The position numbers and the translations under genes are program-made. Below the pieces are notes generated by a model that saw only the letters and a program-made list of their open reading frames with translations, was not told the origin of the DNA and did not search any database. From Thermoanaerobaculia bacterium (GTDB lineage Bacteria > Acidobacteriota > Thermoanaerobaculia > Multivoradales > JAIOJS01), in assembly GCA_030429235.1 (NCBI GenBank), contig JAUIDB010000006.1, positions 124,001-188,000 on the forward strand: DNA of 64,000 nt, in the 5' to 3' direction. Each line of letters begins with the position of its first letter. Position 1 is the first letter of the stretch. Positions 27,886 through 50,050 of this stretch are shown here, in pieces.

Positions 27886-28024
27886 CGTAGGGTCGGTGGG
27901 AGTGGGGGGGCTGGCAGCACGATCCGGCGGGCTAGGTATACCATGGACCCCGCCATGATGCCTCCCTCCGTCCCTCTCGATCGCCCCCTTGGCACCGCAG
28001 CGCGAGAGTGACCCCGAGCTCCAG

Positions 28025-30828: not shown

Positions 30829-32060
30829 GAGCTCTTCCCCTCGGTTCCGCCGCCGCCCTGGCGAGAAAGGTCGTGGAAGGATTGCGCGGTCCGGGTCGCG
30901 ATCGTGGTCCACGAGTGAGCGGCCGACACCTGCCGGCCCCCTGCGGCCAACTGGGTGCGGAGGATGGGGTCGGACAGGACCCGCGCCACCGCCTCGGCCA
31001 GGGCCTCGGGATCCTCGGGCGGCACGAGTAGAGCGTCGGCACCGTCGCTGAGCATCTCGGGCAAGGCTCCAACCCGCGTGGCTACCACCGGTACTCCGAG
31101 GGCCAGGGCGAGGAAGAGCACCCCCGATTGGCTGATACTGCGGTACGGCATCACCAACACGTCCGCGGCGGCGAAGAGGGCCGCCACTTCGGAGAACGGG
31201 AGGTACTCGAAGCGACAAACGGCTCCCAGTGCCGACGCCTCGTCCTCGAGGTCGCGGCGATCCGAAGGGGACAGGCGGTCCGGGTTCCCGGCGATCAAGA
31301 GGCGGGCCGAGGGTCGCCTGGCTTGCACCGCCGGCCAGGATTCGAGCAGCAGATCGAGCCCCTTGTAGTGCCGAATGTAACCGAAGAAGAGCGCGACTTC
31401 GTCGGATTCACCCAGGCCCAGCGCTTGGCGGGCCTGCGGCGGGCTCGGTGGCGGCTGGGCCGTTTCTTCGAAGAAGCCGTACTCTCCATGGGGGATGACC
31501 TCGATCCGCCGGGAGTCCACGCCGAGCTCTCGCTCGAGGCGGCGCCGATCCACTTCGGAATGGGCGACGACGATGTGGGGCAGTCGGTGGATGGCGCCGT
31601 AGATCCAGCGGGCGAAGCGCAGCGGCTCGTGGGGAGTGACCACATGCGCGGTGGAGACCACCCGGAGGCCCAGGAGGCGGAGCAGCCAGAGGTAGAGCAG
31701 AGCACTGGTGTTGGTGCTGTGGAGATGGACCACATCCGGGGCGACGCGACGAGCGTAGCGGGCGGTGGTCCAGGCGTCGAACACGGCCTCCAGGCTGCGC
31801 CACCAGCGGAAGGAGCGCCGATGGGGTTGGCCTTGGGTCCAACGCGCGATGCGCCGCTCGACGGAAAACCCAGGATTGGGAGCCGCGTCGGCGGTGAGAT
31901 CGTGCAACTCGAATCCGACGGTGGTGAGCAGTGTCACCTGGTGACCGGCGTCGGCGAGGGCGCACGACAGGTTGTACGCGTAGTGCAACAGCCCTCCCCG
32001 GCCGAAGGTCTCGACCTCGAGAATACGCAGCGGAGGAGGACCGTCGGCGGCTTCGGGCAT
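30825..32060 (-). CDS. GT4 glycosyltransferase
   Basis: RILEVETFGRGGLLHYAYNLSCALADAGHQVTLLT...PYRSISQSGVLFLALALGVPVVATRVGALPEML. Confidence 0.9.
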   Translation of the reverse strand: MPEAADGPPPLRILEVETFGRGGLLHYAYNLSCALADAGHQVTLLTTVGFELHDLTADAAPNPGFSVERRIARWTQGQPHRRSFRWWRSLEAVFDAWTTARYARRVAPDVVHLHSTNTSALLYLWLLRLLGLRVVSTAHVVTPHEPLRFARWIYGAIHRLPHIVVAHSEVDRRRLERELGVDSRRIEVIPHGEYGFFEETAQPPPSPPQARQALGLGESDEVALFFGYIRHYKGLDLLLESWPAVQARRPSARLLIAGNPDRLSPSDRRDLEDEASALGAVCRFEYLPFSEVAALFAAADVLVMPYRSISQSGVLFLALALGVPVVATRVGALPEMLSDGADALLVPPEDPEALAEAVARVLSDPILRTQLAAGGRQVSAAHSWTTIATRTAQSFHDLSRQGGGGTEGKSS

Positions 32061-32065
32061 GCGGT

Positions 32066-32072
32066 CATAATA
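32066..32072. promoter_or_regulatory. Candidate symmetric -10 box in a 20-bp divergent gap
   Basis: CATAATA: CATAAT on +, TATTAT on -, between start codons at 32060(-) and 32081(+). Confidence 0.4.
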
Positions 32073-32080
32073 AACGCCGA

Positions 32081-35000: not shown

Positions 35001-36172
35001 TCGACCGGAGCGCACTGAGGGAGCTCGCGCGCCTGGCGAGGGACGAGCGTCCCGAGCGTCCGGGAGCCCCCCGTGAGGTTCCCAACGACGAACAGCTGAG
35101 CCTCAGATCGTTGTGGCAGGGCTTGCTCGGACTCGAAACGGTCGGGTTGGACGACAACTTCTTCGAACTCGGAGGCCATTCGTTGCTGGTGGCCGAGATG
35201 ACGATGGCGATCGAAGAGGACTTCGGCGTGCGGCTCGCGGCCCAGCAGGTCTTCCAGAACCCGACGGTTCGGCAGTTGGCGGAGTTCCTCGCCGGGCGCG
35301 GTGAGCGGCGGGGCTACGAGCACCTCTTTCCGCTCCAACCGATCGGATCCGAGGCGCCCTTCATCGTCGCCATTCCCCACTTCTTCGCCGATCTCTTCGC
35401 CGACCTGTTCCGAGGGCAGCGGCCGGTCTACGGGCTGCGGGGAGTCAGCCTGCGGGTCGAGGGGAACCTAAGCCGCTGGCCGACCCTCGGCGATCTCGCC
35501 GAAGAGGTCGCCGATGAGATCTGCGATCGATTCGAGGTGGACACCCGCCCCCGGTCGGGGCGTGGCGTCTACCTGGCGGGGTACTCCTTCGGGGCCTCCA
35601 TGGCCGCGGAGACGGCCCACGTACTGGAGCGGCGCGGGGTCGTGGTGCGCGGTGTGTACCTCGTCACCCCGATGGCGCTCGACCACCTGAGCTGGGGACC
35701 GTTACGGCTCAAGATTCGCGGGTTGAAGCAACCGCTCGAGTCCCTCGGTCGGGCCGAACTGGTTCGTCGTTTCCTGGTCGATCACAACCCGCTCACGTTG
35801 CGTCCCTACCGCTACGCTTGGCGTTGGCTCAAGACCCAACCCCGGCGTCGTCTCCTCGGTCGACTGGGCCGGCTTCGGCGGAGACTCGGTCTTCCCCTGA
35901 CGCCCTCGATCCTGCACGCCGACGTGCGTGCCGACCGGTTTCGCATGCATCAGAGGTTCCGGCCGCGCCACGTAGAGGCACCGACCGTGATCTTCAACGC
36001 CGAGTTCAATGCGCTGGAGCCGGGGACCGATGCGGCCGCCACCTGGCGCTCCTGCTTCCAGGGGGATCTGGAGGTGGTAACGATCCCTGATCCTCACCTC
36101 GACGAGGGTTCGGTAGTCCGGGCGCGCGAGCTATTGCGCGAGTATCTGACGCGGCTGGAGGCCTCGGCGTGA
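32081..36172 (+). CDS. Nonribosomal peptide synthetase, C-A-T-TE
   Basis: C: HHILADE; A: LAYLLYTSGSSGRPKGVAVSHENL, FDEYGPTEATVW; T: FFELGGHSLLVAE; TE: VYLAGYSFGASMAAE with a late DPHLDE. Confidence 0.95.
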   Translation: MMSTDDGPGVQSRAARLEEAIRRKRAGSRRSRELPTRDRALPALLGPLQKSLWLAHRLDPDGATYHLVDAFRVAAPLDFGRLDTAFREVVARHRLLRSTFQKTEIGVEQVVDAVPLSLFVVEATEVEVEGSAREAAVLQARRPFSLERGPLVRLLLVGDLLVLTLHHILADELSLGLLWRDLVAAYEGRPLPPAHLQYDDYVAWSLDRGERRRTEIEFWRARLTPVPEPLQLPLVRRQVEPGEGRWIERQLAETASRDLRQFVAAVGATPFLLAAFAYRVLLGRLSDGPGPAIGTPVSTRNHPAVAEMVGYFTNPLVLPGAVDEDSTVEDALRAFVAETRERLAHSQTPFTDLVETLQLPRSSDRSPLFQTLFVYQQPEAAIRLEGEPLRPVVLDLGVSKFDLTLFVAEREGRFDLAVEYRTALYDVVGMQRLLALYETLLIDLVSGDRRRPVAALSLVPPEESARLRGLERGHELAPGPTTVLAQFLRQVATGGGREAVRSRSQSLDYRELLVAADEVAAALEGVSVEVGDRVGLYLDRSAAAIAAVLGCHLAATAYVPLDPRYPMSRNHRILEDAGVVVVLTSGALAGELPDGDWKVLAFDERLSLGLPDREPVAAVRSREPAPADLAYLLYTSGSSGRPKGVAVSHENLERSNAARLAYYGTRGVAPARFLLIPSLAFDSSVAGLFWMLASGGTLVLPTAEEARDPRALLELIAREGVDSLLCVPSLYSQMLRGSRTEAKATLSTLRTVIVAGEACPWSLVAEHQNRCPGVRLFDEYGPTEATVWASVSELTAIDRSDFGSQEPVPIGGPIPGVTIELVDNRSRIVPIGVPGRALIGGTTVARGYWNRPDLTAGSFLGRDADRRYDTGDRMAWTEDGQLLFLGRVDEQIKLRGVRIEPGEIEANALEWPEVRAAAAVVAGPAGGAERLTLFVAGPVPEDWRRRMGERLPQEMRPHAATSLSSLPLLPNGKIDRSALRELARLARDERPERPGAPREVPNDEQLSLRSLWQGLLGLETVGLDDNFFELGGHSLLVAEMTMAIEEDFGVRLAAQQVFQNPTVRQLAEFLAGRGERRGYEHLFPLQPIGSEAPFIVAIPHFFADLFADLFRGQRPVYGLRGVSLRVEGNLSRWPTLGDLAEEVADEICDRFEVDTRPRSGRGVYLAGYSFGASMAAETAHVLERRGVVVRGVYLVTPMALDHLSWGPLRLKIRGLKQPLESLGRAELVRRFLVDHNPLTLRPYRYAWRWLKTQPRRRLLGRLGRLRRRLGLPLTPSILHADVRADRFRMHQRFRPRHVEAPTVIFNAEFNALEPGTDAAATWRSCFQGDLEVVTIPDPHLDEGSVVRARELLREYLTRLEASA

Positions 36173-36978
36173 GTTGGAGGTCGATTCCGATCGAGGGAGA
36201 ACCGCGCTGGCCAGCCGGCCGGCACCTCGAACAACTGGATGCCGCGGGTGGAGTCGTGCGACCGGAGAGCGAGGAACTGGTCGAGTGGTTCGAGACCTAT
36301 CGCGGTCAGCACCGCGAACGGCTGGCCCGGGACCTGGGACTGGTGGAGCGATTCGCGACTCCGGCCGCGCGTCTTCTCGAGGTCGGAGCGTCTCCCTTTC
36401 TGCTGACCGCTGCCCTGGTTTCGGGCGACTACGAGGTGTGTGCCATCGATTTGGCTCCAGAGCGGTTTGCCTCCACGGTGGCCGAACTCGAACTCGACGT
36501 CCGGCGCTGCGACATCGAGAGGGAACCCCTTCCCGTGGCCGATGGTTCGTGCGATCTCGTACTGTTCAACGAACTCTTCGAGCATCTGCACCAGGATCCC
36601 ATCTTCGCACTGCGAGAGGTCCTTCGGGTGCTCGACTCCCAGGGTTGTCTTCTACTCTCGACGCCCAATCTACGGTCGTTTCGCGGTCTCAAGAACCTCT
36701 GGTTGCACCACCAGGCCCATGCCGTGTCAGGGGGAGTGTTCGAACAGTGGGACAAGCGGCGACGCCTCGGGCACATGGGACACGTGCGGGAGTACACCGG
36801 GTTCGAGGTCCTCGACTTTCTCGAGAGGATCGGTTTCGCGATCGATCGTTTGATCTATCGAGGGGGACACGGTCGCGGAGTCGTCGGGTGGGCGGAGAGG
36901 CTGGTACCTTCGATGCGGCCGTTCCTGACCGTGGTGGCTCGCCCTGCGGCGCGGGCGGTAGTGGAGCCAGGCTCATGA
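36169..36978 (+). CDS. SAM-dependent class I methyltransferase
   Basis: RLLEVGASPFLLTAALVSGDYEVCAIDLAPE...SCDLVLFNELFEHLHQDPIFALREVLRVLDSQGCLLLSTPN; overlaps the NRPS stop. Confidence 0.88.
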   Translation: MSWRSIPIEGEPRWPAGRHLEQLDAAGGVVRPESEELVEWFETYRGQHRERLARDLGLVERFATPAARLLEVGASPFLLTAALVSGDYEVCAIDLAPERFASTVAELELDVRRCDIEREPLPVADGSCDLVLFNELFEHLHQDPIFALREVLRVLDSQGCLLLSTPNLRSFRGLKNLWLHHQAHAVSGGVFEQWDKRRRLGHMGHVREYTGFEVLDFLERIGFAIDRLIYRGGHGRGVVGWAERLVPSMRPFLTVVARPAARAVVEPGS

Positions 36979-37877
36979 CGGGGGGTGCACGACGCGTCTT
37001 CGTGGTTGGAGTGCCGAGGTCCGGGACCACCCTGGTGCAGAGCATCCTGGCGGCGGTGCCCGGGGTGGCCTCCTGGACCGAGAGCCACTTCTTCTCCCGC
37101 CACTATCGGTGCCTTCCGGGGGCAGCATCGCGAGCCATCCTGGTACGCAATCCGGAGGAGGCACTGCGTCGCTTCCTGGCGGAGAACGGCCTGGAGCAGA
37201 CGCTGGAGGACGTGGTCTCCTCACTGGGCGATCAGGCCTTGCTGGGTCCGCCCGGTTGGCGCCAGGCCCTACTCTCGTCGAGAGTGGCGCGCGACTTCGT
37301 GCGACTCCTCGACCTCCTGGCCGAACGGCAGGGCTGTGCCGCTTGGGTCGAGAAAACTCCGGCTCACCTTCGCTTCTTGCCCTGGTTGCAGCGCGTGCTC
37401 GAACCCGGCTCGGTGTGTTTCGTGCACGTGGTGCGAGACGGTCTCGCCACGGTGGGTTCGCTCCATCGCACGTCGGCGCACTGGGAGCGCCGCTACTCGC
37501 TCGCCGAGTGCATCGAGCGCTGGAACCGCGATGTGGCTCGCTCGCTGACCCGCGCGAACGAGGACCACCCGACCGATCGTTTCCTCTTCTATGACGACCT
37601 CGTACGATCCCCGGAGGCGACCGCACGGACCCTGGTCGAGGGGCTCGGGTGGCCCTGGGAGGAGGGCATCCTGGCGCGACGTAACGGCGTCTCGGCTCGG
37701 CTCACCGCGCCGGGGGAGGAGTTCTGGAAGGCTCGAGCGGGCGAGGCGATCGCCGAAGACACCGGGGAATCCGTCCCCTTGACACCCGAGCTACGAGAAC
37801 GAGTCCTGGCGGGTCTCGACCACGAACTGCTCCCTCGCCTGCGCGCGGTGGTGGCGCGCCGGGGCCGGAACCGATGA
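36975..37877 (+). CDS. Sulfotransferase
   Basis: RVFVVGVPRSGTTLVQSIL (PAPS 5'-PSB loop) and CFVHVVRDGLATVGS. Confidence 0.88.
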   Translation: MTGGARRVFVVGVPRSGTTLVQSILAAVPGVASWTESHFFSRHYRCLPGAASRAILVRNPEEALRRFLAENGLEQTLEDVVSSLGDQALLGPPGWRQALLSSRVARDFVRLLDLLAERQGCAAWVEKTPAHLRFLPWLQRVLEPGSVCFVHVVRDGLATVGSLHRTSAHWERRYSLAECIERWNRDVARSLTRANEDHPTDRFLFYDDLVRSPEATARTLVEGLGWPWEEGILARRNGVSARLTAPGEEFWKARAGEAIAEDTGESVPLTPELRERVLAGLDHELLPRLRAVVARRGRNR

Positions 37878-38653
37878 CGCTCGCCGCGGCGGCTCCCGCG
37901 GTCTCGGTGGTGGTCCCCTTCTTCGCCAGTTCCGCCACGTTGGCCTCCTGTATCGAGTCTCTGTTGAGCCAAGGGTCGCGGGGCGTTCCGGTCGAGTTCC
38001 TGTTCATCGACAACGGTGCTCCCGACGACTCGGCGGAGATCGTCCGGGAGTACCCCGACGTGGTCCTGCTCCGCGAATCGACCCCCGGGGCCTATGCGGC
38101 GCGCAATGCCGGGTTGCGTCGAGCTCGGGCTCCGATCATCGCCTTCACCGATGCCGATTGTGTGGTGGACCAGGACTGGCTGGAGCAGATCGTCCGCGCC
38201 CTCGAGGTTCCGACCGTCGGCGTCGTGCTCGGCGCCTGCCGGTATCCCCAGCGGGCCTCCTGGGCCCTGAAGTTCCTGGCGGCGTACGAGAACGCCAAGA
38301 TCCAGTACGTTCTGGACCACTGCCCGCCGGCGTGTTTCTTCGGTTACGCGAACAACATGGCGGTTCGGGCTTCGTTGTTCGACGAGTTGGGGCCCTTTCG
38401 CGAATGGCGCCGCGCGGGAGACACCGAATTCGTGCACCGGGTGGCGGCAGAACGCCCCGATCTTCGGGTTCACTTCGATCCGGCGGTCCGGGTCACCCAC
38501 CACGAGTTTCTCTCCTTTCGAGCGCGGGCTCGAAGGCTGAACCTGTACACCGAGACCAACGCCAAGATCGATACGTTTCGCGAATTGACCTTCGGACAGC
38601 GGTTGCGGGTGCTGTCGCGATGTCGCTTGGACGGTCAGGGGAGCGGTCGCTAG
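37874..38653 (+). CDS. Family 2 glycosyltransferase
   Basis: VSVVVPFFASSATLASCIESLL...YAARNAGLRRARAPIIAFTDADCVVDQDWLEQIV. Confidence 0.88.
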   Translation: MTLAAAAPAVSVVVPFFASSATLASCIESLLSQGSRGVPVEFLFIDNGAPDDSAEIVREYPDVVLLRESTPGAYAARNAGLRRARAPIIAFTDADCVVDQDWLEQIVRALEVPTVGVVLGACRYPQRASWALKFLAAYENAKIQYVLDHCPPACFFGYANNMAVRASLFDELGPFREWRRAGDTEFVHRVAAERPDLRVHFDPAVRVTHHEFLSFRARARRLNLYTETNAKIDTFRELTFGQRLRVLSRCRLDGQGSGR

Positions 38654-41600
38654 TCGAGTTCGGAGTCGAGTTCGGCGAGGAGAGCATCTTCGGCGATCCG
38701 GGCCAGCCCGGCGAGACTGGGTTGGGCGAAGACGGTTTCCAGGGGGAGATCGAGGTCGAACTCGTCGCAGAGTCGGAGGATCATCCGCATGGCGGTGAGG
38801 GAGGTGCCGCCCAGCTCGAAGAAATCGTCGCCCCTTCCCACCTCGTCGAGAGCCAGCTCGTCGCGCCACAATCCGGCCAGGAACTCCTCGACCGGTCCCC
38901 GAGGGGGCTCGACGGGGGGGCGAGTGTGCCGTGCGGTCGGCAAGGACCAGCGACGGAGGGCCTCGAGGTCGAGCTTGCCATTGGGAGTCAGCGGTAGATC
39001 GCTCAGTTGGTGAAACTGCGCCGGGACCAGGGGGGCGGGCAGGCGTCGGCCGAGATGGCGGGCCAGCGCTGAGGTATCCACCGAGGCGTCGGCGGTGGGG
39101 ACGAGAAAAGCCTGGAGGGACTCTGGTGCCGGCCCGGACTGCGGCGCGTAGCCGACCTCCTGCAGGATGGACCGCACCCGCTCTTCGTCGATCGCGTCGT
39201 CGAGTTCCTCGAGGGCTTCGTCGCGCTTCTTGTGTCCGAGCCGCACATCCCAGCTGTACGGCAGCGCGTAGTTGTGGAACCCCCGTTCGCGCTGGTGGAC
39301 GAAGATGCCAGCGTCGTTGATCAGACAGTTGGTCGAGCGGCCGGTGTCTTCGGGGCGTACCCAGGGAACCCGCTGCTTCAGATAGGAGTAGAGCTCTTCC
39401 ATGTCGACATCGCAGTAGCGGTAGAAGTCGACGAACCGAACCCGCTCGAAGATCTCGTCGGTCGCGAACAAGCTGACGTCCAGCGTGCGGCTGACGGCAT
39501 CGGGGGTGCGGTGGTAGGCCTTGCGAGAGGCGAGTACAGCCTGGTCTACCTCCTCCGGACTCACCCGTCCGTGGCGGAACATCTCCTCGGTCAGGCGGGT
39601 TTCGAACATCTGACCGCGCGACAGGCCGGTGACGATGGCGGGGATCCCGAGTTCGTGGGCGCGACGGGTGGCGAGGGTGTAGATCGTCTTGAAACAGCCA
39701 TTGCAGACGTTCGAGAAGCGTTGCAAGCTGTCGCGGAAGATCTCGTTCATCGCGGGGGTGGTGGCGAACTCGACGTCGACTCCCAGCTGGTCGGTGACGC
39801 GCCGTATGTTCTCCTTGGCACCCTCCGAGATGAAGCCGTTGTCCAGCGTGAAGGCGTAGATCGAGTAGCCCAGATCGGCGAGTCGACAGAGAGCGTAGGT
39901 ACTGTCCTTGCCGCCGCTGTACAACATCAGACAATCCCAGGGGCCCCGGCGCTGCGCCCGGGCCTCGTCGAGATTGCTCCGCAGGTCATCCAGGGTGCGA
40001 AAGTAACCCGCCGCGTGCTCTCGGATCGACTCGTAGGAGTGGCAGAGCGAGCAGGTCCCCTCGGCGTCGAAGGTGGCACCAGGGTAGTTGGCGGGCAGTC
40101 CGCACCGCCGACAGCCCGCTCCCGGGTTCGGAGTCGGGACGCCGAGGTCGGCATCCGCCGGGCCTGGAGTGCCCACCACCAGAACCGCGCACCGCTCGAC
40201 GCCGGGGAAGGTCTCGATCAGGGTCTCGACCTCGCCCGGTTCGAGCCGAAAGCCCGCGACCTTGACCTGTCGATCGGTGCGACCGAGGTACTCGAGTTTC
40301 GTCGGGTCGACGAACCGCACCAGATCGCCAGAGCGATACCGTACCGCCGCTCCAGGCTCGGGGCCGGGAACGAACCGAGCCGCGGTCTCCTCGGGGAGCT
40401 GATGGTAGCCGCGGGCGAGTCCGTGGCGCGCGATCCACAGTTCTCCAGGAACTCCCGTCGGCACGGCCTGCCCGGCTGGGTTCAGCACCTCGATCTGGAC
40501 ATGGTCAGCCGGCCGACCGATCGGTACGGAGCCGACTCGATCGCTCGCAGGGTCGAATCGATGGACGAGACATCCGACCACTGCTTCGGTGGGTCCGTAC
40601 TCGTTGTAGATCTCGGCCGAAGGTGCGAGGCGCTCGGCGACCGCTGCCGCCAGTTCCGCGGAGAACGACTCGCCACCGACGATGAGCCGACGGACACCGG
40701 TCGCTTCGAAGCGGCCGCTCCGGAGCACGGAGAGGTGGGAGGGAGTGAGTTTCAGGAAGTCGATCTGGTTGCGTTCGACGGCGTGCAGGAACGCCTCGTC
40801 GAGCGCGCCCGCGGCGCGCGGATAGAGCTCGAGCGTTCCCCCGGTGATCAGGGGGAGGAAGAGACTCGTGACGGTGAGGTCGAAGGCCAGTGAGGTCACC
40901 AGTCCGTAGCGCAGGGCCTCGCCTCGCACGTAGGTTCGTTCGGCGAACTCGAGGTAGTCGGCCAGTCCCCGGTGTTCGATCAGCACCCCCTTGGCCCGGC
41001 CAGTCGATCCAGAGGTGTAGAGCAGATAGGCGAGATCGGTCAGGCTTGGGGGTTCCGGGGGCCGCGAGTCGTGGCCGTGGTCGAGGGCCTGACGGACGGT
41101 GGGGGGATCGAGGAGCAGCGTCGCCCCCGAGTCTTCGACCAGCTGTTTCTGGCGCTCCTCTGGATGGGCGGGGTCGATCGGCACGTAGGCGCCGCGGGCA
41201 CTGAGCACGGCCAGGATGGCAACCACGCTCTCCAAGGAACGATCCCCCAGGACGGCGACCCGGTCCCCGGGTTGGAGGTGGTGCACTCGGAGCAGGTGGT
41301 TGGCCAGGATCGCTACCTGGTCCCGGACCTGAGCGTAGTCGACGGACTGATCGACCGTGCCGTCGACCACCAGTTCCAGAGCGACGCGAGTCGGGTGTCG
41401 GTTGGCCGTGTCGAAGAAGGCGTCGACCACCGTCCGCTCGGGCGTAGGGCAACGATCGCTCTGGTTGAAACTATCGAGCTGCTGACGCTCGTCATCGGTG
41501 CGCAGGTCGATGCTGTCGATTCTCTGGTCCGGGTCGCGAAGGAGTGCCTCCACCAAGGTCTCGAAATGGTGCGGGATGCGCTCTCTCGCGGCGGCCGAAA

Positions 41601-42828
41601 GGTGCGTCCGGTTCAGGTCGAAGTCGAACTGGAAACGGCCCGAGCCCGAGAAGTCGTGGATCTGCAAGCGAAGAGCATGCAGATGATCGGCATGACCGGG
41701 ATGGAGCCAGGTCACGGCCGTAGCCGCGTCTCCGAAGCGGCCGAAACGGACGGGCAGGTAGTTCAAGACGGCTCGGCTCATCGAGTGCTCCGGAGTCGGA
41801 GCGGTCCCGGCGGCATCGCTTCGTAGGAGGTCCATTGCGCGGGCCAGGGTCTCCGCACCCAGCCGTCGGAAGGTCGTGCCTTCGGGTACCCTGGCGGCGA
41901 AGGGGAACATCTCGATAAAGAGGCCGATGGTGTCTTTGGCCTCCGGGGTAGAGCGGCCCAGGAGCGGCGTGTCGAACGAGGTCTCCGGCTCTGCACTGAT
42001 CTGGCTCAGGAAGGCGTGGAACAGGGTCGAGAAGAGGGCGAACAGGGAGAGGTGGGGAAGCACCGAGGCGAAGGGGGCCTCGGCCGCCCGCGCGCGCAGC
42101 GCCGAGGAGCGTTCCGCATCCAACTGCAGGCTCGAGCGGACGCTGGCCGTACCGCGGTGGACCGGGGACGGCCGTTCTCCGTAGAGGGTGAGCCCACCCG
42201 GGGCAGTGGTTCGGTCCGGGGTGGTGGAAGACCTGTCACTGGCCCTCGGCCCTGGCGCCAGCGCGTAGTAGCGGTCGGCCGTCACCGGCCGCGGCGCGAA
42301 CTCCGGTTGGCTCTCCAGGGCGAGGTAGCTCGCGGCCAATCGGTCGTAGAGCAGCCGAGTCGACCAGGCATCGGTGATCAGGTGGTGTTGGTTGAGGTAC
42401 CAGCCGGTCTGTCGGTTCGGAAGCCGTACCAGGACGCTGTCGACCAGCGGTCCGTCGAGGGGAAGCGGTCGAGCACAGCGCGCGCGGCCCCAGTCGAGAA
42501 AGCGCGCGACCGCATCCTCTTGGCCACTGAAGTCGGCCACGGTCAGTGCGAGTTCGGAACTCGAGAACCGCTGCAGTCGGCCTCCCGGGCCGGATCGGAA
42601 TCGAGTCTGGAGCGCTTCGCTGGAGGCGGTGACCTGGCGCCAGGCGGCTCGGAATCGCTCCGGCTCCAGCTCGTCCTCGATCACGAAGGCGAAGGCCATG
42701 TTGTAGAGCGGCGACTCGGCGTGGAGCTGCTGTCCGATGGCGATCGGAAGCTGGGCCCGCGTCAACCCGCCGGTGTCCAGTGGGCGGTCGACGGGCTCGG
42801 TCCCTGCGTCCTGCTCGCTGCGCGTCAC
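38650..42828 (-). CDS. Nonribosomal peptide synthetase, C-A(interrupted)-T, with internal PP-loop ATP-pyrophosphatase-like domain
   Basis: C: NQHHLITDAW; A: LAYLLYTSGSTGRAKGVLIEH, YNEYGPTEAVVG, KVAGFRLEPGEVE; insert: CRRC...CSLC...LMLYSGGKDSTYALC...CNGCF; A10 LPLTPNGKLD; T FFELGGTSLTAM. Confidence 0.94.
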   Translation of the reverse strand: MTRSEQDAGTEPVDRPLDTGGLTRAQLPIAIGQQLHAESPLYNMAFAFVIEDELEPERFRAAWRQVTASSEALQTRFRSGPGGRLQRFSSSELALTVADFSGQEDAVARFLDWGRARCARPLPLDGPLVDSVLVRLPNRQTGWYLNQHHLITDAWSTRLLYDRLAASYLALESQPEFAPRPVTADRYYALAPGPRASDRSSTTPDRTTAPGGLTLYGERPSPVHRGTASVRSSLQLDAERSSALRARAAEAPFASVLPHLSLFALFSTLFHAFLSQISAEPETSFDTPLLGRSTPEAKDTIGLFIEMFPFAARVPEGTTFRRLGAETLARAMDLLRSDAAGTAPTPEHSMSRAVLNYLPVRFGRFGDAATAVTWLHPGHADHLHALRLQIHDFSGSGRFQFDFDLNRTHLSAAARERIPHHFETLVEALLRDPDQRIDSIDLRTDDERQQLDSFNQSDRCPTPERTVVDAFFDTANRHPTRVALELVVDGTVDQSVDYAQVRDQVAILANHLLRVHHLQPGDRVAVLGDRSLESVVAILAVLSARGAYVPIDPAHPEERQKQLVEDSGATLLLDPPTVRQALDHGHDSRPPEPPSLTDLAYLLYTSGSTGRAKGVLIEHRGLADYLEFAERTYVRGEALRYGLVTSLAFDLTVTSLFLPLITGGTLELYPRAAGALDEAFLHAVERNQIDFLKLTPSHLSVLRSGRFEATGVRRLIVGGESFSAELAAAVAERLAPSAEIYNEYGPTEAVVGCLVHRFDPASDRVGSVPIGRPADHVQIEVLNPAGQAVPTGVPGELWIARHGLARGYHQLPEETAARFVPGPEPGAAVRYRSGDLVRFVDPTKLEYLGRTDRQVKVAGFRLEPGEVETLIETFPGVERCAVLVVGTPGPADADLGVPTPNPGAGCRRCGLPANYPGATFDAEGTCSLCHSYESIREHAAGYFRTLDDLRSNLDEARAQRRGPWDCLMLYSGGKDSTYALCRLADLGYSIYAFTLDNGFISEGAKENIRRVTDQLGVDVEFATTPAMNEIFRDSLQRFSNVCNGCFKTIYTLATRRAHELGIPAIVTGLSRGQMFETRLTEEMFRHGRVSPEEVDQAVLASRKAYHRTPDAVSRTLDVSLFATDEIFERVRFVDFYRYCDVDMEELYSYLKQRVPWVRPEDTGRSTNCLINDAGIFVHQRERGFHNYALPYSWDVRLGHKKRDEALEELDDAIDEERVRSILQEVGYAPQSGPAPESLQAFLVPTADASVDTSALARHLGRRLPAPLVPAQFHQLSDLPLTPNGKLDLEALRRWSLPTARHTRPPVEPPRGPVEEFLAGLWRDELALDEVGRGDDFFELGGTSLTAMRMILRLCDEFDLDLPLETVFAQPSLAGLARIAEDALLAELDSELD
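39118..40170 (-). other. Inserted PP-loop/CxxC domain (about aa 887-1237) within the adenylation domain
   Basis: SGGKDS encoded at 39901-39918; Cys pairs at aa 906/909, 926/929 and 1042/1045; flanked by A8 and A9/A10 motifs in one continuous frame. Confidence 0.85.
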
Positions 42829-42847: not shown

Positions 42848-43108
42848 TCAGCGAGTCGAGGCGCGCGTTCGGGCCACGTATTGCGCCAGGCTGGCGGTGG
42901 TCTGGAAGTTCTCGACCACGAAGTCTCGGGGGCCGGTGGTGATGCCGAACGTCTCGTCGACGAACCCTGCCAGGCGGAGTACCGCCACCGAGTCGAGCAG
43001 ATCGGACAGCAGGTCGTCGTCGCGATCGATGGTGACTTCGGCGGGGAGGAGCTCCTGATGTACGAAGGTGAGGATCGTCGCTTCGAGTTCTCGATTCGGC
43101 TGCGTCAT
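42848..43108 (-). CDS. Stand-alone peptidyl/acyl carrier protein
   Basis: 86 aa; DDDLLSDLLDSVAVLRLAGFVDETFGI with phosphopantetheine Ser in LLDSV. Confidence 0.85.
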   Translation of the reverse strand: MTQPNRELEATILTFVHQELLPAEVTIDRDDDLLSDLLDSVAVLRLAGFVDETFGITTGPRDFVVENFQTTASLAQYVARTRASTR

Positions 43109-44694
43109 GGTTCGGCTACCTTCTGTTCTCGAGTCTCGATCTGGCCCGAGGCCGAGAGGCTCTGGCGGTCGACCTTGCCGGTGGGGGTGCGCGGCAGCCG
43201 GTCCAGGATCTCGAGGCTCTCGGGGACGGCATAGGCCGGAAGCAGGTCCCGCAGCCGGTCGCGCAGGGCGTCCGCCGAGGTGGCTCCGCGCGAGACCACG
43301 GCGGCTCGCAAGGACAGACTCGCTTCACCGTCGGAGACGGAGTAGGCGACCGCCTCCTCCACCTCGTCGAGGTCGAGCAACGCGGCTTCGACCTCACCCA
43401 GCTCGACGCGGTGACCACGGATCTTGATCTGCAGGTCGGTCCTGGCGACGAAGGCCAGGTCGCCATTCGCCAGGGTCTGGACCTGATCCCCCGTACGAAA
43501 GTAGGTTTCTTCGAAACCTCCGCCGCTCGGCCGGCGATAGAAGGCGGTGTGGTTGCGGTCTGGGTCGTTCCAGTATCCACTCATCACCGTCGACCCACGA
43601 ATCAGGAGCTCGCCTGATGCACCTGCCGCCACCGGTTCCAGGTCGCCGTCCACCACCTCGGCGGCGGTGTGCTCGCAGGGGCGACCGATCGGCAGAGGGT
43701 CCGGGAACTCGCCGTCCGGGAGGTGGTAGTAGGTGCAGACATTGACCTCGGTCGAACCGTAGACATGGCTGAATCGCGCTTTCGGTAGGCGGCGCCGCAG
43801 TCGCTCGAGGTGCTTCCGGGGAAAGGTCTCCCCGGCGAACAGAATCCATCGGAGCGAAGCCAGATCCCTCTCCTCGAGAGCTCCCCGCAGCAACAGTTGC
43901 ACCAGAGCGGTGGGGACCGAGTACCAGACCGAGATCGCTTCGCGCTCGATCGTGAGAGACAGGCTACCCGGCAGCTTGAGCGTGGCGGGAGAGAAGAGGA
44001 CCGTCGAGGCGCCGGCGCGGGCGGCGGCGTAGTAGTCGAAGGTAGCAAAGCAGGTGTGGTGCGAAGAGTGCTGACTCAGCCGGTCCTCGGACCCCAGGTC
44101 GTAGGCCGCTACCGCCCACTCGACGAAGGCCATGGCGCTGGCATGGGTGTGGCGGATCAGTTTGGGAGTTCCGGTGGATCCGGAGGTGTGCAGGATGTAC
44201 GCCGTGTCGAGTTCGAGAACCGGGACGTCGGGTAGGCCGTCGTTCGTCTCCGCCGCTTCGACCTCCGTCCACGACGCGATCGATCGGTCGCCGATCGGGT
44301 CCACGACTCCGATGACGTGGCGCAAGGTGTGGCAACGGGCTGCGATCTCCCCGAGTCCGGCGGCCCGCTTTGGTTCGGTGACCAGGTGGGTAGCGCCCGT
44401 TGCCTCGAGGATTCTCTCGATCTGCGCCGCCGGAGACCTAGGGTCGATCGGGACCAGAGCACCCCCGGCGGCAAGCACGCCGTAGAAACTCTCGGGGACC
44501 CGCGGCCCGCGGTCGAGCAGTACGGCGACCCGTGCTTGCCGTTGCAGTCCACGCTCGAGCAGCGTGCGGGCCAGGGCACCACTTCGTCGGACGAGCTGTT
44601 GGTAGCTTCGATCACCGCCCAGGCCACGCGTGGCGATGGCGTCGGGCTGCCGGTGCGCCGCGTCCTGGATCGTCCGATGCAGTAGCCGGGTCAC
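43105..44694 (-). CDS. Stand-alone amino-acid adenylation enzyme, PltF/RedM-like
   Basis: AYILHTSGSTGTPKLIRHTH; VWYSVPTALVQLLLRG; LRWILFAGETFPRKHLERLRRRLP; VYGSTEVNVCTYYHLP; LPRTPTGKVDRQ. Confidence 0.88.
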   Translation of the reverse strand: MTRLLHRTIQDAAHRQPDAIATRGLGGDRSYQQLVRRSGALARTLLERGLQRQARVAVLLDRGPRVPESFYGVLAAGGALVPIDPRSPAAQIERILEATGATHLVTEPKRAAGLGEIAARCHTLRHVIGVVDPIGDRSIASWTEVEAAETNDGLPDVPVLELDTAYILHTSGSTGTPKLIRHTHASAMAFVEWAVAAYDLGSEDRLSQHSSHHTCFATFDYYAAARAGASTVLFSPATLKLPGSLSLTIEREAISVWYSVPTALVQLLLRGALEERDLASLRWILFAGETFPRKHLERLRRRLPKARFSHVYGSTEVNVCTYYHLPDGEFPDPLPIGRPCEHTAAEVVDGDLEPVAAGASGELLIRGSTVMSGYWNDPDRNHTAFYRRPSGGGFEETYFRTGDQVQTLANGDLAFVARTDLQIKIRGHRVELGEVEAALLDLDEVEEAVAYSVSDGEASLSLRAAVVSRGATSADALRDRLRDLLPAYAVPESLEILDRLPRTPTGKVDRQSLSASGQIETREQKVAEP

Positions 44695-44701
44695 GGGGTT
44701 C

Positions 44702-45910
44702 TCAGGGCAGGATCTTCTGCAGGGCGGGCGGAAGCGACTCGTACATCGGCACGTCGATCTCGAAGGCCCTCTCGGCGGCCCAGACCGAGGCGACCAGGAT
44801 CATGCCGGCGGCTGCGACCCGCAGGCCCCACCCTCGATAGACCGGCCAGCGCCGCACGAGGTAGAGCAGGGGTACCAGCCCGGCCACGATCACGATCTGG
44901 CCGATCTCGACCCCCAGGTTGAAGGCGAGCAGGGAGAGTCCCACGTGTTCGCTGAGAACTCCCATCTCCGAGAGCGCTCCCGCGAAACCGAAGCCGTGGA
45001 ACAGTCCGAAGCCGACCACCACCAGCCAGAGGCGTCCCCGGAAGATCGGAACGATCAGATCGGCGGCCGCGATCGCGATCGAAACGGCGATGATCACCTC
45101 CACGAGCTTGCCGGGAAGCTCGACCACCCCCAGCGAGGCCAGACTCAAGGTGAGGCTGTGGGCGACAGTAAATGCAGTGACGATCTTGACCACGTTGAGG
45201 AGAGCGGGGCCGAAGGCTTCTACCGGTTGCCAAACGCCGTCGACCCGCCGAAGCACCGCCGGAAGCAACAGCGCCGTCAGGAAGAGGATGTGGTCGATCC
45301 CCTCCCAGATGTGCTCGATGCCCAGTCCGAGGACCGCCATGAATCCCTGGAGACGGCCGTCGGTGGTGAGTTCGAACTCCTGGCGACGGTCGTCGGGGCT
45401 GAAGACCAGAGAGACTCGATTCTCGTTGGCGAAGGTCCCCGTGGCCCAGTTGTACTCGACGAGAAGAAAACCGCGGTGGTCGGGATCCTCGTCGAACAGA
45501 ACCGAGTAGTCGAAGGTCAAGGTGTCCGGGACCGAGTCGAGGCCTTCCAGGGAGAACGAGAGCAGCGCGAATCCCTCCGAGACCGCCAGGACTTCGCTGT
45601 CGGTGAACCGCATCGGCAGCCGAGTTCCCTGGTGCTCGATACGGACCTTCTGTCGGTAGTACTCCTGCAGGAAGCCGACGTGCTGCGGGAAGTTCTCTGC
45701 CGTGATCTCGTCCTCGGTGCCGCTGAGTCCCAGGGCAGGGTTGAGGTTCTCGAGAGCGATCTCGAACCGTCCCGTCACGGAGTCCTGCTGGATCTGCAGG
45801 TAGAGATAACTCTCTCCCACGTTGTGCGCTTGCAGCGAGGTCGAGGTCAGGAAGACGAGAAGAGCCGAGCAGATCCAGGCAGCGAGGCGGCGGTCGTACA
45901 GTCGTGTCAT
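44702..45910 (-). CDS. HupE/UreJ-like membrane protein
   Basis: Signal peptide, soluble N-terminal domain, then GIEHIWEGIDHILFLTALLL...FTVAHSLTLSLASLGV...FGLFHGFGFAGAL. Confidence 0.82.
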   Translation of the reverse strand: MTRLYDRRLAAWICSALLVFLTSTSLQAHNVGESYLYLQIQQDSVTGRFEIALENLNPALGLSGTEDEITAENFPQHVGFLQEYYRQKVRIEHQGTRLPMRFTDSEVLAVSEGFALLSFSLEGLDSVPDTLTFDYSVLFDEDPDHRGFLLVEYNWATGTFANENRVSLVFSPDDRRQEFELTTDGRLQGFMAVLGLGIEHIWEGIDHILFLTALLLPAVLRRVDGVWQPVEAFGPALLNVVKIVTAFTVAHSLTLSLASLGVVELPGKLVEVIIAVSIAIAAADLIVPIFRGRLWLVVVGFGLFHGFGFAGALSEMGVLSEHVGLSLLAFNLGVEIGQIVIVAGLVPLLYLVRRWPVYRGWGLRVAAAGMILVASVWAAERAFEIDVPMYESLPPALQKILP

Positions 45911-45994
45911 GGGATTCCTATCTTGTTCTGTCCCGGGGTGGGTGCGAAAGGCCGGGTCGGCGCGGAGCGAGTCCTAGAGTCGGGAGGGGGTCGT

Positions 45995-47137
45995 TCAGCC
46001 GAGTCCGCGGAGGCCAGCGATCAGGTTGCGTTGGATCTCCGAGGTGCCGACGTAAAGAGTCGTGGCCAACGCGTCCCGGAGTTCGCGCTCGATCTCGTAG
46101 TCGACCATATAACCGTACCCCCCGAAGAGTTGGATTGCATCTCGACAGGTGGCGACGTAGGCCTCGCTGACGGCGAGTTTGGCCAGCGCCGATTCGCGGG
46201 TCACCGAGCCCTTCGATCCCTGGGCCCAGGCGGCCCGATAGAGCAGGAGACGGGCGGCCTCGAGACGGAGCTCCATGTCGGCCACACGATGCGACACTCC
46301 CTGGTACCGACCGATCGGCCCCTTTCCGGTATCGCGGGAGCGCGCGTGCCGGACGCAGCGCTCGAGGAGTCGCTCCATGACCCCGACCGCGGGAGCCATC
46401 ACCAGGAGCCGCTCGACATCCATGGTGTGGGTGAACAACATCGCACCGGAACCCACCTCCCCGAGAAGGGCATCGGCCGGGAGACGGCAGCGGTCGAGGA
46501 AAACTTGCGCCACCGGACTCGTGCGGAGCCCCATCTTGGCCATCGACGGTCCGACCGACAGTCCCTGGGTGTCGGCGGGGACGAGAAAGGCGGACAGACC
46601 GGTGAAGCCCTCGCCCGTCCGGGCGTAAACCACGAACAGGTCGGCGATCGGTGCGTTGGTCACGAAGGTCTTGGAGCCATCGAGCTCCCAGCAGTCTCCC
46701 TCTCTCTTCGCCACCATGGAGAGTCCGAGGGCGTTCGATCCGCTGTCCGGCTCGGTAACGGCGGTGGCTCCGATCACCACCCCGTCGACCATTCCGGACA
46801 ACCACTGGGCTCTCTGGGCCTCGGTTCCCGCCTCGATGAGGGGAACGGTGCAGGAAGCGACGTGCGCCGCCACCGAGAAGACGAGTCCGTTGTCGGCCGC
46901 ACCGTAACCGAGGCCTTCGAAGACAGCCACGGCGGTTAACAGGTCCTGGCCAGCACCATGCCAGGTCTCGGGGGTCAGAAGTCCTTGCAGTCCGAACTGG
47001 GCACAGGCGTTCCACAGTTCGCGCGAGAACTGTTGGTCTCGGTCGCGCTCGATCACTCCGTCCGCCAGGCGCTCGGCGGCGAAGTCGGCTGCGCCCTGCT
47101 TGAGCGCTCGCTGTTCGTCGGTCCAATCGAAGTGCAC
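45995..47137 (-). CDS. Acyl-CoA dehydrogenase family protein, PltE/RedW (prolyl-PCP dehydrogenase)-like
   Basis: NGLVFSVAAHVASCTVPLIEAGT, TKTFVTNAPIADLFVVYA-type segment, VSHRVADMELRLEAARLLLYRAAW, QLFGGYGYMVDYEIERELRDALATTLYVGTSEIQ. Confidence 0.88.
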   Translation of the reverse strand: MHFDWTDEQRALKQGAADFAAERLADGVIERDRDQQFSRELWNACAQFGLQGLLTPETWHGAGQDLLTAVAVFEGLGYGAADNGLVFSVAAHVASCTVPLIEAGTEAQRAQWLSGMVDGVVIGATAVTEPDSGSNALGLSMVAKREGDCWELDGSKTFVTNAPIADLFVVYARTGEGFTGLSAFLVPADTQGLSVGPSMAKMGLRTSPVAQVFLDRCRLPADALLGEVGSGAMLFTHTMDVERLLVMAPAVGVMERLLERCVRHARSRDTGKGPIGRYQGVSHRVADMELRLEAARLLLYRAAWAQGSKGSVTRESALAKLAVSEAYVATCRDAIQLFGGYGYMVDYEIERELRDALATTLYVGTSEIQRNLIAGLRGLG

Positions 47138-47222: not shown

Positions 47223-49256
47223 TCAAGGTGCGTCGGGACGGGGAGGCTCTCCCTCGACCAGAAGGACGCGGTCGAAGGCGACGGCGAGAGTCCGCTCGTC
47301 CTCCGCGGCCGGATCCAGGTCGCGCGGAGACTGGACCCAGTCGAAGGTGAACTCGAGGTGGTCGATCTCCTCGTCGCTTCGGTAGGGACCGAGGGTGAGC
47401 TGGTTCCAGCCCGGTTCCAGGGTGACGCTGCCGACCGGTTGCCCGTGGACCGAGAGGTGCAGGCGTTGAGGTGGTCGGTGGTCGGTGGGAAAGGGTCTCA
47501 ACCAGAGTCTCAGGTGCCGCGTCGGGTTGGGCCCCGTGGCGACCAGCGCGAGTTCAGCTCGAGAGTCGGCGGCCCAACGAAAGGTGCGACCCTCGGGTTC
47601 TCGTTCTGCGACCGACCACCCCGGGCCGAGCCACGATGCGTCTTCGGAGAAGTCCTGGACTCCGGGGACGTATCCGAGCTGCGCGAGCATCGGAGCGAGG
47701 GGGGACTGAGTCGATCGCGGCGAGACGAGGGTGGCAAAGTCGGGCCAGTAGTAGAGGCGTAGATTGGCGCGCTCACGACGTAGGACCGGGTGCAGCGTCG
47801 CTGTCCACTCGTCGAGCCAAGGCGCGTGGTGGTAGCCCGCACTGAGGAAAAATCCACCGCGGTGGCTCTGGAGGGCGGAGCGAGCACTGGCCTCGGAGAA
47901 GTTGGTCGCCACCAACTCCACTTCGTGTCCGAGCTCGTCGAGGTAGTAGCCGAGGCAGTCGAAGGACCACTCCTCTCGGGTCACGACCACCTCGTCGGGA
48001 CCCGTCCAGGTTCCCACCAGGTCGGCAACCTCGCGCCACGGCGGTTTGTTCCACGGTTCCTTGCGAGCGGCGGTCCAGCCAGGAACGAGGAGGAGTCCGA
48101 GTACGGCCAGTGAGAACACGGTGCTGACCCAGGCCGGGGGGAGGGGAGTTGGCTCGCCCCGGACCTGCCGCCGTCGTACCCAGGATGCCGCCCACGGCCC
48201 GGCCTGACAGGCTCCCACCGCGACCAGGATCAGAAAGGCCGGTAGACCGCTGGAGGTGTAGCGGACGTTGTACCAGTGGTCGAACCGATGGAGGGCGGCC
48301 AGCCAGCCGCAGACCGGCAGGAGCCAGAGCCCGAGCAGCCAGAGCGCGGCCCGGGGCTGCGTTCGCAGCAAGAATCCTGCGCCGGAGACGGCGAACAGGA
48401 GTGCGATCCAGCTCACATAGTTGGTGGTGCCAGAGTCCAGGCCCGACACGGTGAAGCTGGCAGCCAGTCGGTCGAGAGCTTCCGGCGACAGGGGACGCGT
48501 GATCTCGAGACCGGCACTGTGTTCCCTGCGTTCCGTGGAGTCGCCGCTGACTCGGTCGATTCCTTGGACGGTCGGAAAGAGCATCGGGAGCACGCAGAGC
48601 GCCAGACCGGCGGCCAGGACGAGGGAACCTCGACCCACCAGACCTCCCTGGAATCTTGACCAGTACCAGTCACAGATCGCGAGCAGGAGAAAAGCGATCA
48701 GTAGCGGAGCCCCGATCGCACCGCAGTAGACGATGGCCAGGCAAGCCGGAAAGACGAAGATCCGGGCCCACCGCCGCTCCGCCAGCAGGGCGAGGAGGAT
48801 CAGGACGGCGGCCCCCAGCATCACGGCGGAGTAGGGCCTACCCTCTCGCGAGTAGTACACGTGGAGGGGCGAGACCGCGATCAACAGGGCGGCGGCGAGT
48901 CCGATCCAGCGGTTGCGGGTTGTCGCCGTCGCGGCCAACCCGAGCCCGAGGACACCGAACAGGCCGGCGATGGCCGGGGCGAGCCGTACTCCGAACTCCC
49001 CCTCGGCGAAGTGCAGCGACAGGACCTGCAGAGCGTAGTACAGAGGACCGTTCTCGCGATCGACCGGGAGGCCGGTGAACCATCCCCACCAGGACGTGGC
49101 CCCAGACATGGCTTCGCGGGCACGATTGACGTGCAGGACCTCGTCGTACCAAAGCGATGGTTCGGCGAGACCATCGAAGCGTAGGAACAGGGCTACCCCA
49201 CCAACTCCGACGAGCCCTACCAGCCAAAGGAGGTCCACCCTCTTGCGCCACGGCAC
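47223..49256 (-). CDS. GT39-like integral membrane glycosyltransferase
   Basis: LRFDGLAEPSLWYDEVLHVNRARE; GLAATATTRNRWIGLAAALLIAVSPLHVYYSREGRPYSAVML; many TM helices. Confidence 0.78.
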   Translation of the reverse strand: MPWRKRVDLLWLVGLVGVGGVALFLRFDGLAEPSLWYDEVLHVNRAREAMSGATSWWGWFTGLPVDRENGPLYYALQVLSLHFAEGEFGVRLAPAIAGLFGVLGLGLAATATTRNRWIGLAAALLIAVSPLHVYYSREGRPYSAVMLGAAVLILLALLAERRWARIFVFPACLAIVYCGAIGAPLLIAFLLLAICDWYWSRFQGGLVGRGSLVLAAGLALCVLPMLFPTVQGIDRVSGDSTERREHSAGLEITRPLSPEALDRLAASFTVSGLDSGTTNYVSWIALLFAVSGAGFLLRTQPRAALWLLGLWLLPVCGWLAALHRFDHWYNVRYTSSGLPAFLILVAVGACQAGPWAASWVRRRQVRGEPTPLPPAWVSTVFSLAVLGLLLVPGWTAARKEPWNKPPWREVADLVGTWTGPDEVVVTREEWSFDCLGYYLDELGHEVELVATNFSEASARSALQSHRGGFFLSAGYHHAPWLDEWTATLHPVLRRERANLRLYYWPDFATLVSPRSTQSPLAPMLAQLGYVPGVQDFSEDASWLGPGWSVAEREPEGRTFRWAADSRAELALVATGPNPTRHLRLWLRPFPTDHRPPQRLHLSVHGQPVGSVTLEPGWNQLTLGPYRSDEEIDHLEFTFDWVQSPRDLDPAAEDERTLAVAFDRVLLVEGEPPRPDAP

Positions 49257-49309: not shown

Positions 49310-50050
49310 ATGGAGGTCGAAGTCTGGCGCATCGGTCTAGGGGCGGAAGTCGCCGTCGACAGGGCGACGGTTGCCGTACCCTCGGCAACGGACGTCGAGT
49401 TCGTTCCGATCGACCTCGACGATTGGTCCGAGCGCGTGCTCTCCGGCCACGAGCAGGCTCGGGCTCGTCGTCTGAGAACGGCCGACCTGCGACGCCGTTT
49501 CGTTCGCGTGCACGGGAGTCTCCGCGCAATTCTGGCTCGCTACTTGCGTCTTGCGCCGGAGGCAGTCGAGCTGGTGGCGGATCAGGGTTCGAAACCTCGG
49601 CTGTCGGAGTCACACCCTCCACTTCGCTTCAATCTCAGTCACTCGCGCGATCTGGCCCTGCTGGCGGTGCATCGCCACCTAGAGGTAGGTGTCGATGTCG
49701 AGTGGCACGATCCCACGACGGAAACCGGCCGGTTGGCAGCACGTTTTTTTGGGGCCGAGGAGCAGGGGTACGCGGCGCAGGCGGCCGAGGGCCTGAACGC
49801 CATCGCGGCGACGGAGGCGCGCCGGGCCGAGTTCTTTCGCCTCTGGACGCTGCGTGAGGCCTATCTGAAGGGGTTGGGGCTGGGTCTCAGCGTTCCGTTG
49901 ACCGGGTTTGCCGTGTCGGGCCCAAATGTCGTGCCTCCCCGCCTACTGCGGAGCGACTACGGCGATCCCGGCGCCTGGAATCTGGCGAGCTTCGTTCCCC
50001 GCGTGGGATACAGCGCAGGGTTGGCGGTTGCGCAGCCGGCCGCGATCTAG
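49310..50050 (+). CDS. Sfp-type 4'-phosphopantetheinyl transferase
   Basis: KPRLSESHPPLRFNLSHSRDLALLAVHRHLEVGVDVEWHD...FFRLWTLREAYLKGLGLGL. Confidence 0.93.
   Translation: MEVEVWRIGLGAEVAVDRATVAVPSATDVEFVPIDLDDWSERVLSGHEQARARRLRTADLRRRFVRVHGSLRAILARYLRLAPEAVELVADQGSKPRLSESHPPLRFNLSHSRDLALLAVHRHLEVGVDVEWHDPTTETGRLAARFFGAEEQGYAAQAAEGLNAIAATEARRAEFFRLWTLREAYLKGLGLGLSVPLTGFAVSGPNVVPPRLLRSDYGDPGAWNLASFVPRVGYSAGLAVAQPAAI

What the first reader, a model, noticed from the sequence alone, without database searches (positions are those of the whole stretch)
42848..47137. PltF/PltL/PltE-like trio suggests a dehydrogenated acyl-carrier starter unit
On the minus strand lie a stand-alone A domain (VWYSVPTALVQLLLRG, LFAGETFPRKHL, YGSTEVNVCTYYHLP), a carrier protein, and an acyl-CoA dehydrogenase with NGLVFSVAAH, NAPIADLFVVYA and VSHRVADMELRLEAARLLLYRAAW. 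I recognise these as similar to L-prolyl-AMP ligase, PCP and prolyl-S-PCP dehydrogenase of pyrrole-2-carboxyl-PCP pathways (pyoluteorin, prodigiosin). Only the HupE-like gene separates the dehydrogenase from the A domain. Inference: a pyrrolyl or other dehydrogenated acyl-S-PCP could feed the interrupted NRPS.
Basis: partly seen in the sequence, partly recalled or inferred. Interest (0 to 1): 0.72.

Follow-up and report, generated by a model that had tools for sequence, protein, structure and literature searches.

The report
Starter-unit cassette beside asparagine-modifying NRPS
A bacterium carries three genes that load a small acid onto a carrier protein and oxidise it, as in pyrrole antibiotics, next to a peptide synthetase whose built-in domain modifies asparagine; the combination recurs across many bacterial phyla, has no known product, and here the loading enzyme has lost the residue that would grip proline.

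Summary
At 42848-47137 (-) lie PCP, stand-alone A domain, HupE-like gene and dehydrogenase, in one operon with the interrupted NRPS. The dehydrogenase belongs to the carrier-protein (prolyl) dehydrogenase clade with AnaB, Bmp3 and PigA (100/100 support); grouping it with catabolic enzymes is rejected (AU p 1e-10). The interrupted NRPS activates Asn (code DLTKIGEVG) and carries the AMDH/alpha-ANH domain of albicidin AlbIV and cystobactamid CysH, which makes cyanoalanine or isoasparagine. Trio, HupE and C-A(AMDH)-T recur together in Acidobacteriota, Verrucomicrobiota, Cyanobacteriota, Bacteroidota, Actinomycetota and others.

The pyrrolyl reading is not supported for this window. The A domain keeps much of the PltF-type code but has Cys where the amine-binding Asp (D235) should be, as have all 8 relatives with this cassette. 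Relatives with the Asp often carry a gene closest to lysine cyclodeaminase, which suggests pipecolate rather than proline. Trees show that the A-dehydrogenase cassette was exchanged while the AMDH-NRPS stayed. Best reading: an exchangeable starter cassette giving a dehydrogenated acyl-S-PCP, probably from an acid without a free alpha-amine, passed to modified Asn. The chemistry is untested.

The parts
45995..47137 (-). carrier-protein-type acyl-CoA dehydrogenase (PigA/AnaB/Bmp3 clade)
46412..46414 (-). codon of the putative catalytic Glu242 (TMD-V-E-R), same column as AnaB/Bmp3/PigA; MCAD-type Glu is absent (YVGT)
   Evidence: PDB 6af6 (PigA) has Ala in this column; PMC10849742
44702..45910 (-). 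HupE_UreJ_2 membrane protein with an extracytoplasmic-looking N-terminal part; conserved cluster member
43105..44694 (-). stand-alone adenylation domain, PltF/PigI-like, code CFFYLAVVCK
44050..44052 (-). codon of Cys215, at the position of the amine-binding Asp235 (GrsA numbering)
   Evidence: ungapped alignment, Cys in window and all 8 relatives with this cassette
42848..43108 (-). free-standing peptidyl carrier protein; phosphopantetheine Ser40 in LLDSVAVL (codon 42989-42991)
38650..42828 (-). NRPS C-A(AMDH)-T with interrupted A domain, Asn code DLTKIGEVG(K)
41509..42765 (-). condensation domain (HHLITDAWS) expected to take the starter from the PCP
39142..40122 (-). AMDH / alpha-ANH-like (WbuX-like PP-loop) insert between A8 and A9: CxxC..CxxC, SGGKDS
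38698..38883 (-). T domain of the interrupted NRPS
31931..36172 (+). second NRPS C-A-T-TE (A code DSA[C/L]IAEVW), conserved in relatives; true start may be internal
47223..49256 (-). membrane glycosyltransferase-like protein (weak Agl23 match), co-conserved with the operon
49310..50050 (+). 4'-phosphopantetheinyl transferase (start placed at an internal Met)
27989..30828 (+). GT1-type glycosyltransferase and flippase-like gene, co-conserved (assigned by sequence appearance)
36169..38653 (+). methyltransferase-like gene and GT2, co-conserved

Best explanation
The trio is an exchangeable starter-unit cassette of a widespread, product-unknown NRPS cluster family. The stand-alone A domain adenylates a small carboxylic acid and loads it on the free PCP. 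The flavin dehydrogenase takes the alpha-H with Glu242 and a hydride to FAD, giving an unsaturated acyl-S-PCP. The C domain of the interrupted NRPS condenses it with Asn, which is loaded by its own A domain and converted by the inserted AMDH domain to a cyanoalanine or isoasparagine-type residue. The C-A-T-TE adds a third residue and releases the product, which the glycosyltransferases and flippase may decorate and export. In this window's lineage the starter is probably not proline but an acid without a free alpha-amine (identity unknown). Shown by sequence: domain identities, catalytic residues, clade membership, conservation of the set, loss of Asp235, cassette exchange. Inferred: reaction order, substrate class, product.
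For: Dehydrogenase in the clade with AnaB, Bmp3 and PigA (AU test against catabolic grouping p 1.3e-10); best PDB fold matches of its model (pLDDT 90) are AnaB, Bmp3 and PigA. Catalytic Glu conserved. A domain intact; best solved single A domain is the prolyl-AMP ligase 6o6e. Asp235 is Cys in the window and all 8 relatives with the cassette. Two bulky positions near active-site motifs are small in the window clade (Trp of xWER to V/I/T/L/A; residue 94 W/F to A). Asn code and AMDH insert, 52% identical to the X. albilineans AlbIV-like protein; the CysH AMDH was shown in vitro to dehydrate T-bound Asn and by gene deletion to be needed for isoAsn (PMC7966384). Same set across phyla. Mosaic trees: AMDH of L034/L035/L055/L056 nests inside the window clade (13 rows 100/99), while the dehydrogenases of L034/L035/L055 lie in another clade (100/98); holding them with the window's is rejected (AU p 4e-4).
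Against: No biochemistry. The Trp at xWER also varies in other cluster dehydrogenases, so it is weak evidence. The trees leave open whether one or several exchanges happened, or whether the NRPS rather than the cassette moved. That the starter reaches the interrupted NRPS and not another C domain is inferred from gene order only.
Confidence: 0.62

Rival explanations
1. One reading: L-proline is loaded and oxidised to pyrrole-2-carboxyl-S-PCP (or to a dehydroprolyl, as in AnaB), which starts the peptide.
For: Dehydrogenase clade; five of the nine A-code positions are identical to the 6o6e proline code, in the C-terminal half (YLAVVC vs YLALVC); trio architecture as in pyrrole pathways (PMC10849742).
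Against: Asp235 is Cys in the window and all 8 relatives, with flanking residues also remodelled (HHTCF for LHFDL); PigA and RedW equivalog cut-offs not reached; ordinary Pro-code trios (L028, L031, L033) in the same order lack the AMDH-NRPS and form separate lineages.
Confidence: 0.2
2. The starter is pipecolate-derived (dehydropipecolyl, or further oxidised towards picolinyl), as suggested for the wider cluster family.
For: PF02423 gene beside the dehydrogenase in many relatives (15 of 16 loci with it also have the dehydrogenase); two of them match lysine cyclodeaminases at 251-300 bits against 126-128 for ornithine cyclodeaminase.
Against: The window's genome has no PF02423 gene at all and its A domain lacks Asp235. 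The association of the two genes never goes the other way in independent pairs, but only 5 such pairs exist (median sign-test p 0.25).
Confidence: 0.1
3. The dehydrogenase works on CoA esters in catabolism and is a bystander.
For: It is in the acyl-CoA dehydrogenase superfamily and scores 264 bits with acryloyl-CoA reductase.
Against: Clade, catalytic Glu position, conserved linkage with A and PCP across phyla; grouping with catabolic enzymes rejected.
Confidence: 0.03

Closest known systems
Thiotemplated pyrrole pathways (PltF/PltL/PltE, PigI/PigG/PigA, Bmp4/Bmp1/Bmp3, ChmJ/ChmI/ChmH) and anatoxin AnaC/AnaD/AnaB
   Same: Stand-alone A domain, free carrier protein and dehydrogenase of the same clade with the same catalytic Glu
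   Different: Asp235 of the A code is Cys; PigA/RedW cut-offs not met; HupE belongs to the operon; feeds an Asn-AMDH NRPS
Albicidin AlbIV and cystobactamid CysH A(AMDH)-T modules
   Same: Asn-type A domain with an alpha-ANH-like/AMDH domain carrying SGGKD(S); window insert 52% identical to the X. albilineans protein taken as AlbIV
   Different: Here the module has its own C domain (C-A(AMDH)-T), and it goes with a starter cassette and HupE that the AlbIV locus L134 lacks
Lysine cyclodeaminase (pipecolate) starter supply, e.g. PDB 5gzi
   Same: A homologue sits beside the dehydrogenase in many relatives
   Different: Absent from the window's cluster and genome

Membership tests
Carrier-protein-bound prolyl dehydrogenase clade (PigA/AnaB/Bmp3/RedW) | Groups with characterised members, apart from catabolic acyl-CoA dehydrogenases | tested here: met
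   59-row clade 100/100 with AnaB, Bmp3, PigA (the row named PltE_5zw0 there is PigA); AU p 1.3e-10 against catabolic grouping
Carrier-protein-bound prolyl dehydrogenase clade (PigA/AnaB/Bmp3/RedW) | Catalytic Glu in the xER helix and no MCAD-type Glu | tested here: met
   E242 and YVGT
PigA / RedW equivalogs (pyrrole-forming) | Score over the curated NCBIfam cut-off | tested here: not met
   371 of 500 and 369 of 650 bits
Pyrrole-2-carboxyl-PCP pathway | A domain with a proline-type code including Asp235 (DLLYLALVCK or close) | tested here: not met
   CFFYLAVVC; Asp235 is Cys in the window and all 8 relatives; the actual substrate is not tested
Pyrrole-2-carboxyl-PCP pathway | Four-electron oxidation of prolyl-S-PCP to pyrrolyl-S-PCP | not testable with these tools
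   needs an enzyme assay
AMDH-type Asn module (AlbIV/CysH) | Asn A-domain code | tested here: met
   DLTKIGEVG in the window; DLTK[I/V]GEV in nearly all relatives
AMDH-type Asn module (AlbIV/CysH) | alpha-ANH-like domain with SGGKD motif within the A-T module, homologous to AlbIV | tested here: met
AMDH-type Asn module (AlbIV/CysH) | Dehydration or aminomutation of T-bound Asn | not testable with these tools
   shown for CysH in PMC7966384
WbuX N-acetyl sugar amidotransferase | Score over TIGR03573 cut-off | tested here: not met
   109 of 203 bits

The most novel reading that the evidence does not exclude
A cross-phylum family of small, possibly glycosylated or metal-binding peptides (dehydrogenated cyclic or acyl starter, modified Asn, conserved third residue), taken up by TonB receptors and HupE-like permeases, in which starter cassettes are swapped as a unit and the window's lineage has switched to a starter without an alpha-amine by losing Asp235.
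Probability: 0.25. Interest if true: 0.75.

Novelty: new variant of a known kind. Interest (0 to 1): 0.55.

Why it matters
AMDH domains make rare nitrile or isoasparagine residues in potent gyrase inhibitors, and the cystobactamid authors noted many uncharacterised homologues. Here such modules are tied, in many phyla, to a starter-unit cassette of the pyrrole type and to a HupE-like membrane protein, which defines a concrete, large and unexplored cluster family with cultured hosts (Leptolyngbya PCC 7375, Neolewinella, Zobellia). The exchange of cassettes with a change in the amine-binding residue is a natural experiment on how stand-alone A domains change substrate class. If the product turns out to be a known pyrrolyl peptide, the finding is ordinary.

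Tried and rejected
Catabolic dehydrogenase: rejected. WbuX-type sugar amidotransferase, thioamide or amidine synthase for the insert: dropped once the AlbIV/CysH match was found. Trp next to the catalytic Glu as a marker of a substrate switch: weakened, since it varies among other cluster dehydrogenases. Proline supply by ornithine cyclodeaminase in relatives: replaced by lysine cyclodeaminase after the PDB comparison. I first took PDB 5zw0 for PltE; its title says PigA, so no PltE or RedW sequence entered the tree. A search for over-cut-off PigA members in 369 genomes of the X. albilineans class gave none. Literature searches for a described cluster with this gene set found none in the held open-access library.

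Full report
The observation. The minus strand runs GT39-like gene (47223-49256), dehydrogenase (45995-47137), HupE_UreJ_2 gene (44702-45910), stand-alone A domain (43105-44694), PCP (42848-43108) and an NRPS C-A(insert)-T (38650-42828), with gaps of 85 bases or less; a phosphopantetheinyl transferase lies nearby on the plus strand. Order and content are conserved in relatives of the same order and phylum: dehydrogenase 67-73%, A domain 55-61%, NRPS 47-55% identity. One genome of the same genus lacks the dehydrogenase, so the cluster is patchy.

The dehydrogenase. Best NCBIfam models are PigA (371 bits, cut-off 500) and RedW (369, cut-off 650); the next is acryloyl-CoA reductase at 264. Best PDB sequences are AnaB (4irn, 326 bits) and the 6cxt dehydrogenase, which PMC10849742 identifies as Bmp3 (318 bits); rat SCAD follows at 252. 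In a maximum-likelihood tree of 74 proteins the window clade (10 rows, one a duplicate of the window; 100/100) lies inside a 59-row clade (100/100, stem 0.83) with AnaB, Bmp3 and PigA, apart from catabolic enzymes. Holding the window clade with the catabolic enzymes costs 107 log units, p-AU 1.3e-10. The row called PltE_5zw0 is in fact PigA (title). The model of the window protein (pLDDT 90) matches AnaB, Bmp3 and PigA first in the PDB. The base is Glu242 in TMD-V-E-R, the column of the Glu of AnaB, Bmp3 and PigA; PDB 6af6, a PigA entry, carries Ala in this column. The MCAD-type Glu is absent (YVGT).

The A domain. The code is CFFYLAVVC in the window and in the 8 relatives with the same cassette (one has A for V322), against DLLYLALVC read from the solved L-proline--[L-prolyl-carrier protein] ligase 6o6e (PltF by my recollection) and from L033. 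The alignment over the segment is ungapped (HSSHHTCFATFDYY against HAPLHFDLSVLDIY). Asp235 binds the alpha-amine in amino acid activating A domains (established knowledge), so its replacement by Cys, with neighbours changed too, argues for an acid without a free alpha-amine. This is inference; catalytic motifs including the A10 Lys are intact. In the dehydrogenase two bulky positions (Trp of xWER; residue 94) are small in the window clade, compatible with another substrate, but the first also varies elsewhere.

The interrupted NRPS. Its A code DLTKIGEVG is that of Asn-activating domains (code assignment from general knowledge). The insert (aa 903-1229, between A8 and A9) matches TIGR03573 below cut-off (109 of 203 bits) and keeps SGGKDS and two CxxC pairs in all copies aligned. 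A scan of genome contigs found 376 relatives; the X. albilineans locus L134 is an A(insert)-T protein of 942 aa, which I take to be AlbIV. Published work assigns this domain in AlbIV to conversion of Asn to cyanoalanine and in CysH to dehydration and aminomutation of Asn (PMC8949500; PMC7966384; the latter notes many uncharacterised homologues). So the 'interrupted NRPS' is a C-A(AMDH)-T Asn module.

The cluster family. Of 47 loci of at least 17 kb around AMDH modules, 37 have the HupE-like gene, 23 a dehydrogenase hit, 21 a TonB receptor (nearly all in Bacteroidota, where such receptors are common) and 16 a PF02423 gene. Dehydrogenase and PF02423 gene go together (15 both, 8 and 1 alone, 23 neither; Fisher p 8e-6), but with only 5 independent pairs, none contrary (median sign-test p 0.25). 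Two diverse PF02423 proteins match lysine cyclodeaminases far better than ornithine cyclodeaminase, which suggests pipecolate as the usual starter; the window's genome has no PF02423 gene. The second NRPS has the same A code DSA[C/L]IAEVW or close to it in clusters of several phyla.

Cassette exchange. In the AMDH tree the Acidobacteriota loci L034, L035, L055, L056 sit inside the window clade (13 rows 100/99; 99/92 within), and L055 also shares MT, GT2, FAD oxidase and second NRPS at 51-59% identity. Yet in L034 and L055 the A domain, PCP, HupE and dehydrogenase are only 35-43% identical to the window's, with Asp235 present (DMFYLGSQC), and the dehydrogenases of L034, L035 and L055 fall in another clade (100/98); forcing them together with the window's is rejected (p-AU 4e-4). 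The starter cassette therefore seems to change as a unit in front of the same NRPS. The A-domain tree puts the window's A domains as sister to all other AMDH-cluster A domains, so the direction and number of exchanges are open.

Verdict. The specific pyrrolyl proposal is unlikely here. The parts are known kinds; the combination, its spread and the exchangeable, Asp235-lacking starter cassette appear undescribed in the literature I could search.

Noticed in passing
44702-45910 (-) and L055-L133: HupE_UreJ_2 protein is a frequent partner of AMDH-NRPS clusters across phyla (37 of 47 loci), and TonB receptors sit next to many Bacteroidota copies and in L058; suggests a metallophore or an imported product.
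   Followed up: partly
L069:3105-4211, L066:3057-4181, L058:3494-4591: Cyclodeaminase-family gene (PF02423) beside the dehydrogenase; L066 and L058 copies are closest to lysine cyclodeaminase 5gzi.
   Followed up: partly
L062, L066, L069, L071, L095, L105, L108, L126, L131: Cluster dehydrogenases of Bacteroidota and Cyanobacteriota have Asp where the catalytic Glu is (EYDR or EHDR); meaning unknown.
   Followed up: no
L096, L100, L102, L103, L111, L112 (Zobellia, Euzebyella, Poritiphilus): Flavobacterial clusters without the dehydrogenase; the Zobellia and Algibacter genomes tested have no PigA-like enzyme above 270 bits. Their A code is mostly DPFYLALLC or close.
   Followed up: partly
L047 (G014:C191): A second AMDH module, in a multi-module NRPS, in a genome that also has the window-type cluster.
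   Followed up: no
L028, L031, L033: Ordinary trios of dehydrogenase, Pro-like A domain (DLFYLALVC, DLLYNALVC, DLLYLALVC) and PCP in the same order without the AMDH-NRPS: probable true pyrrole pathways.
   Followed up: partly
31931-36172 (+): Third-residue A code DSA[C/L]IAEVW is conserved between phyla; I could not assign an amino acid.
   Followed up: no
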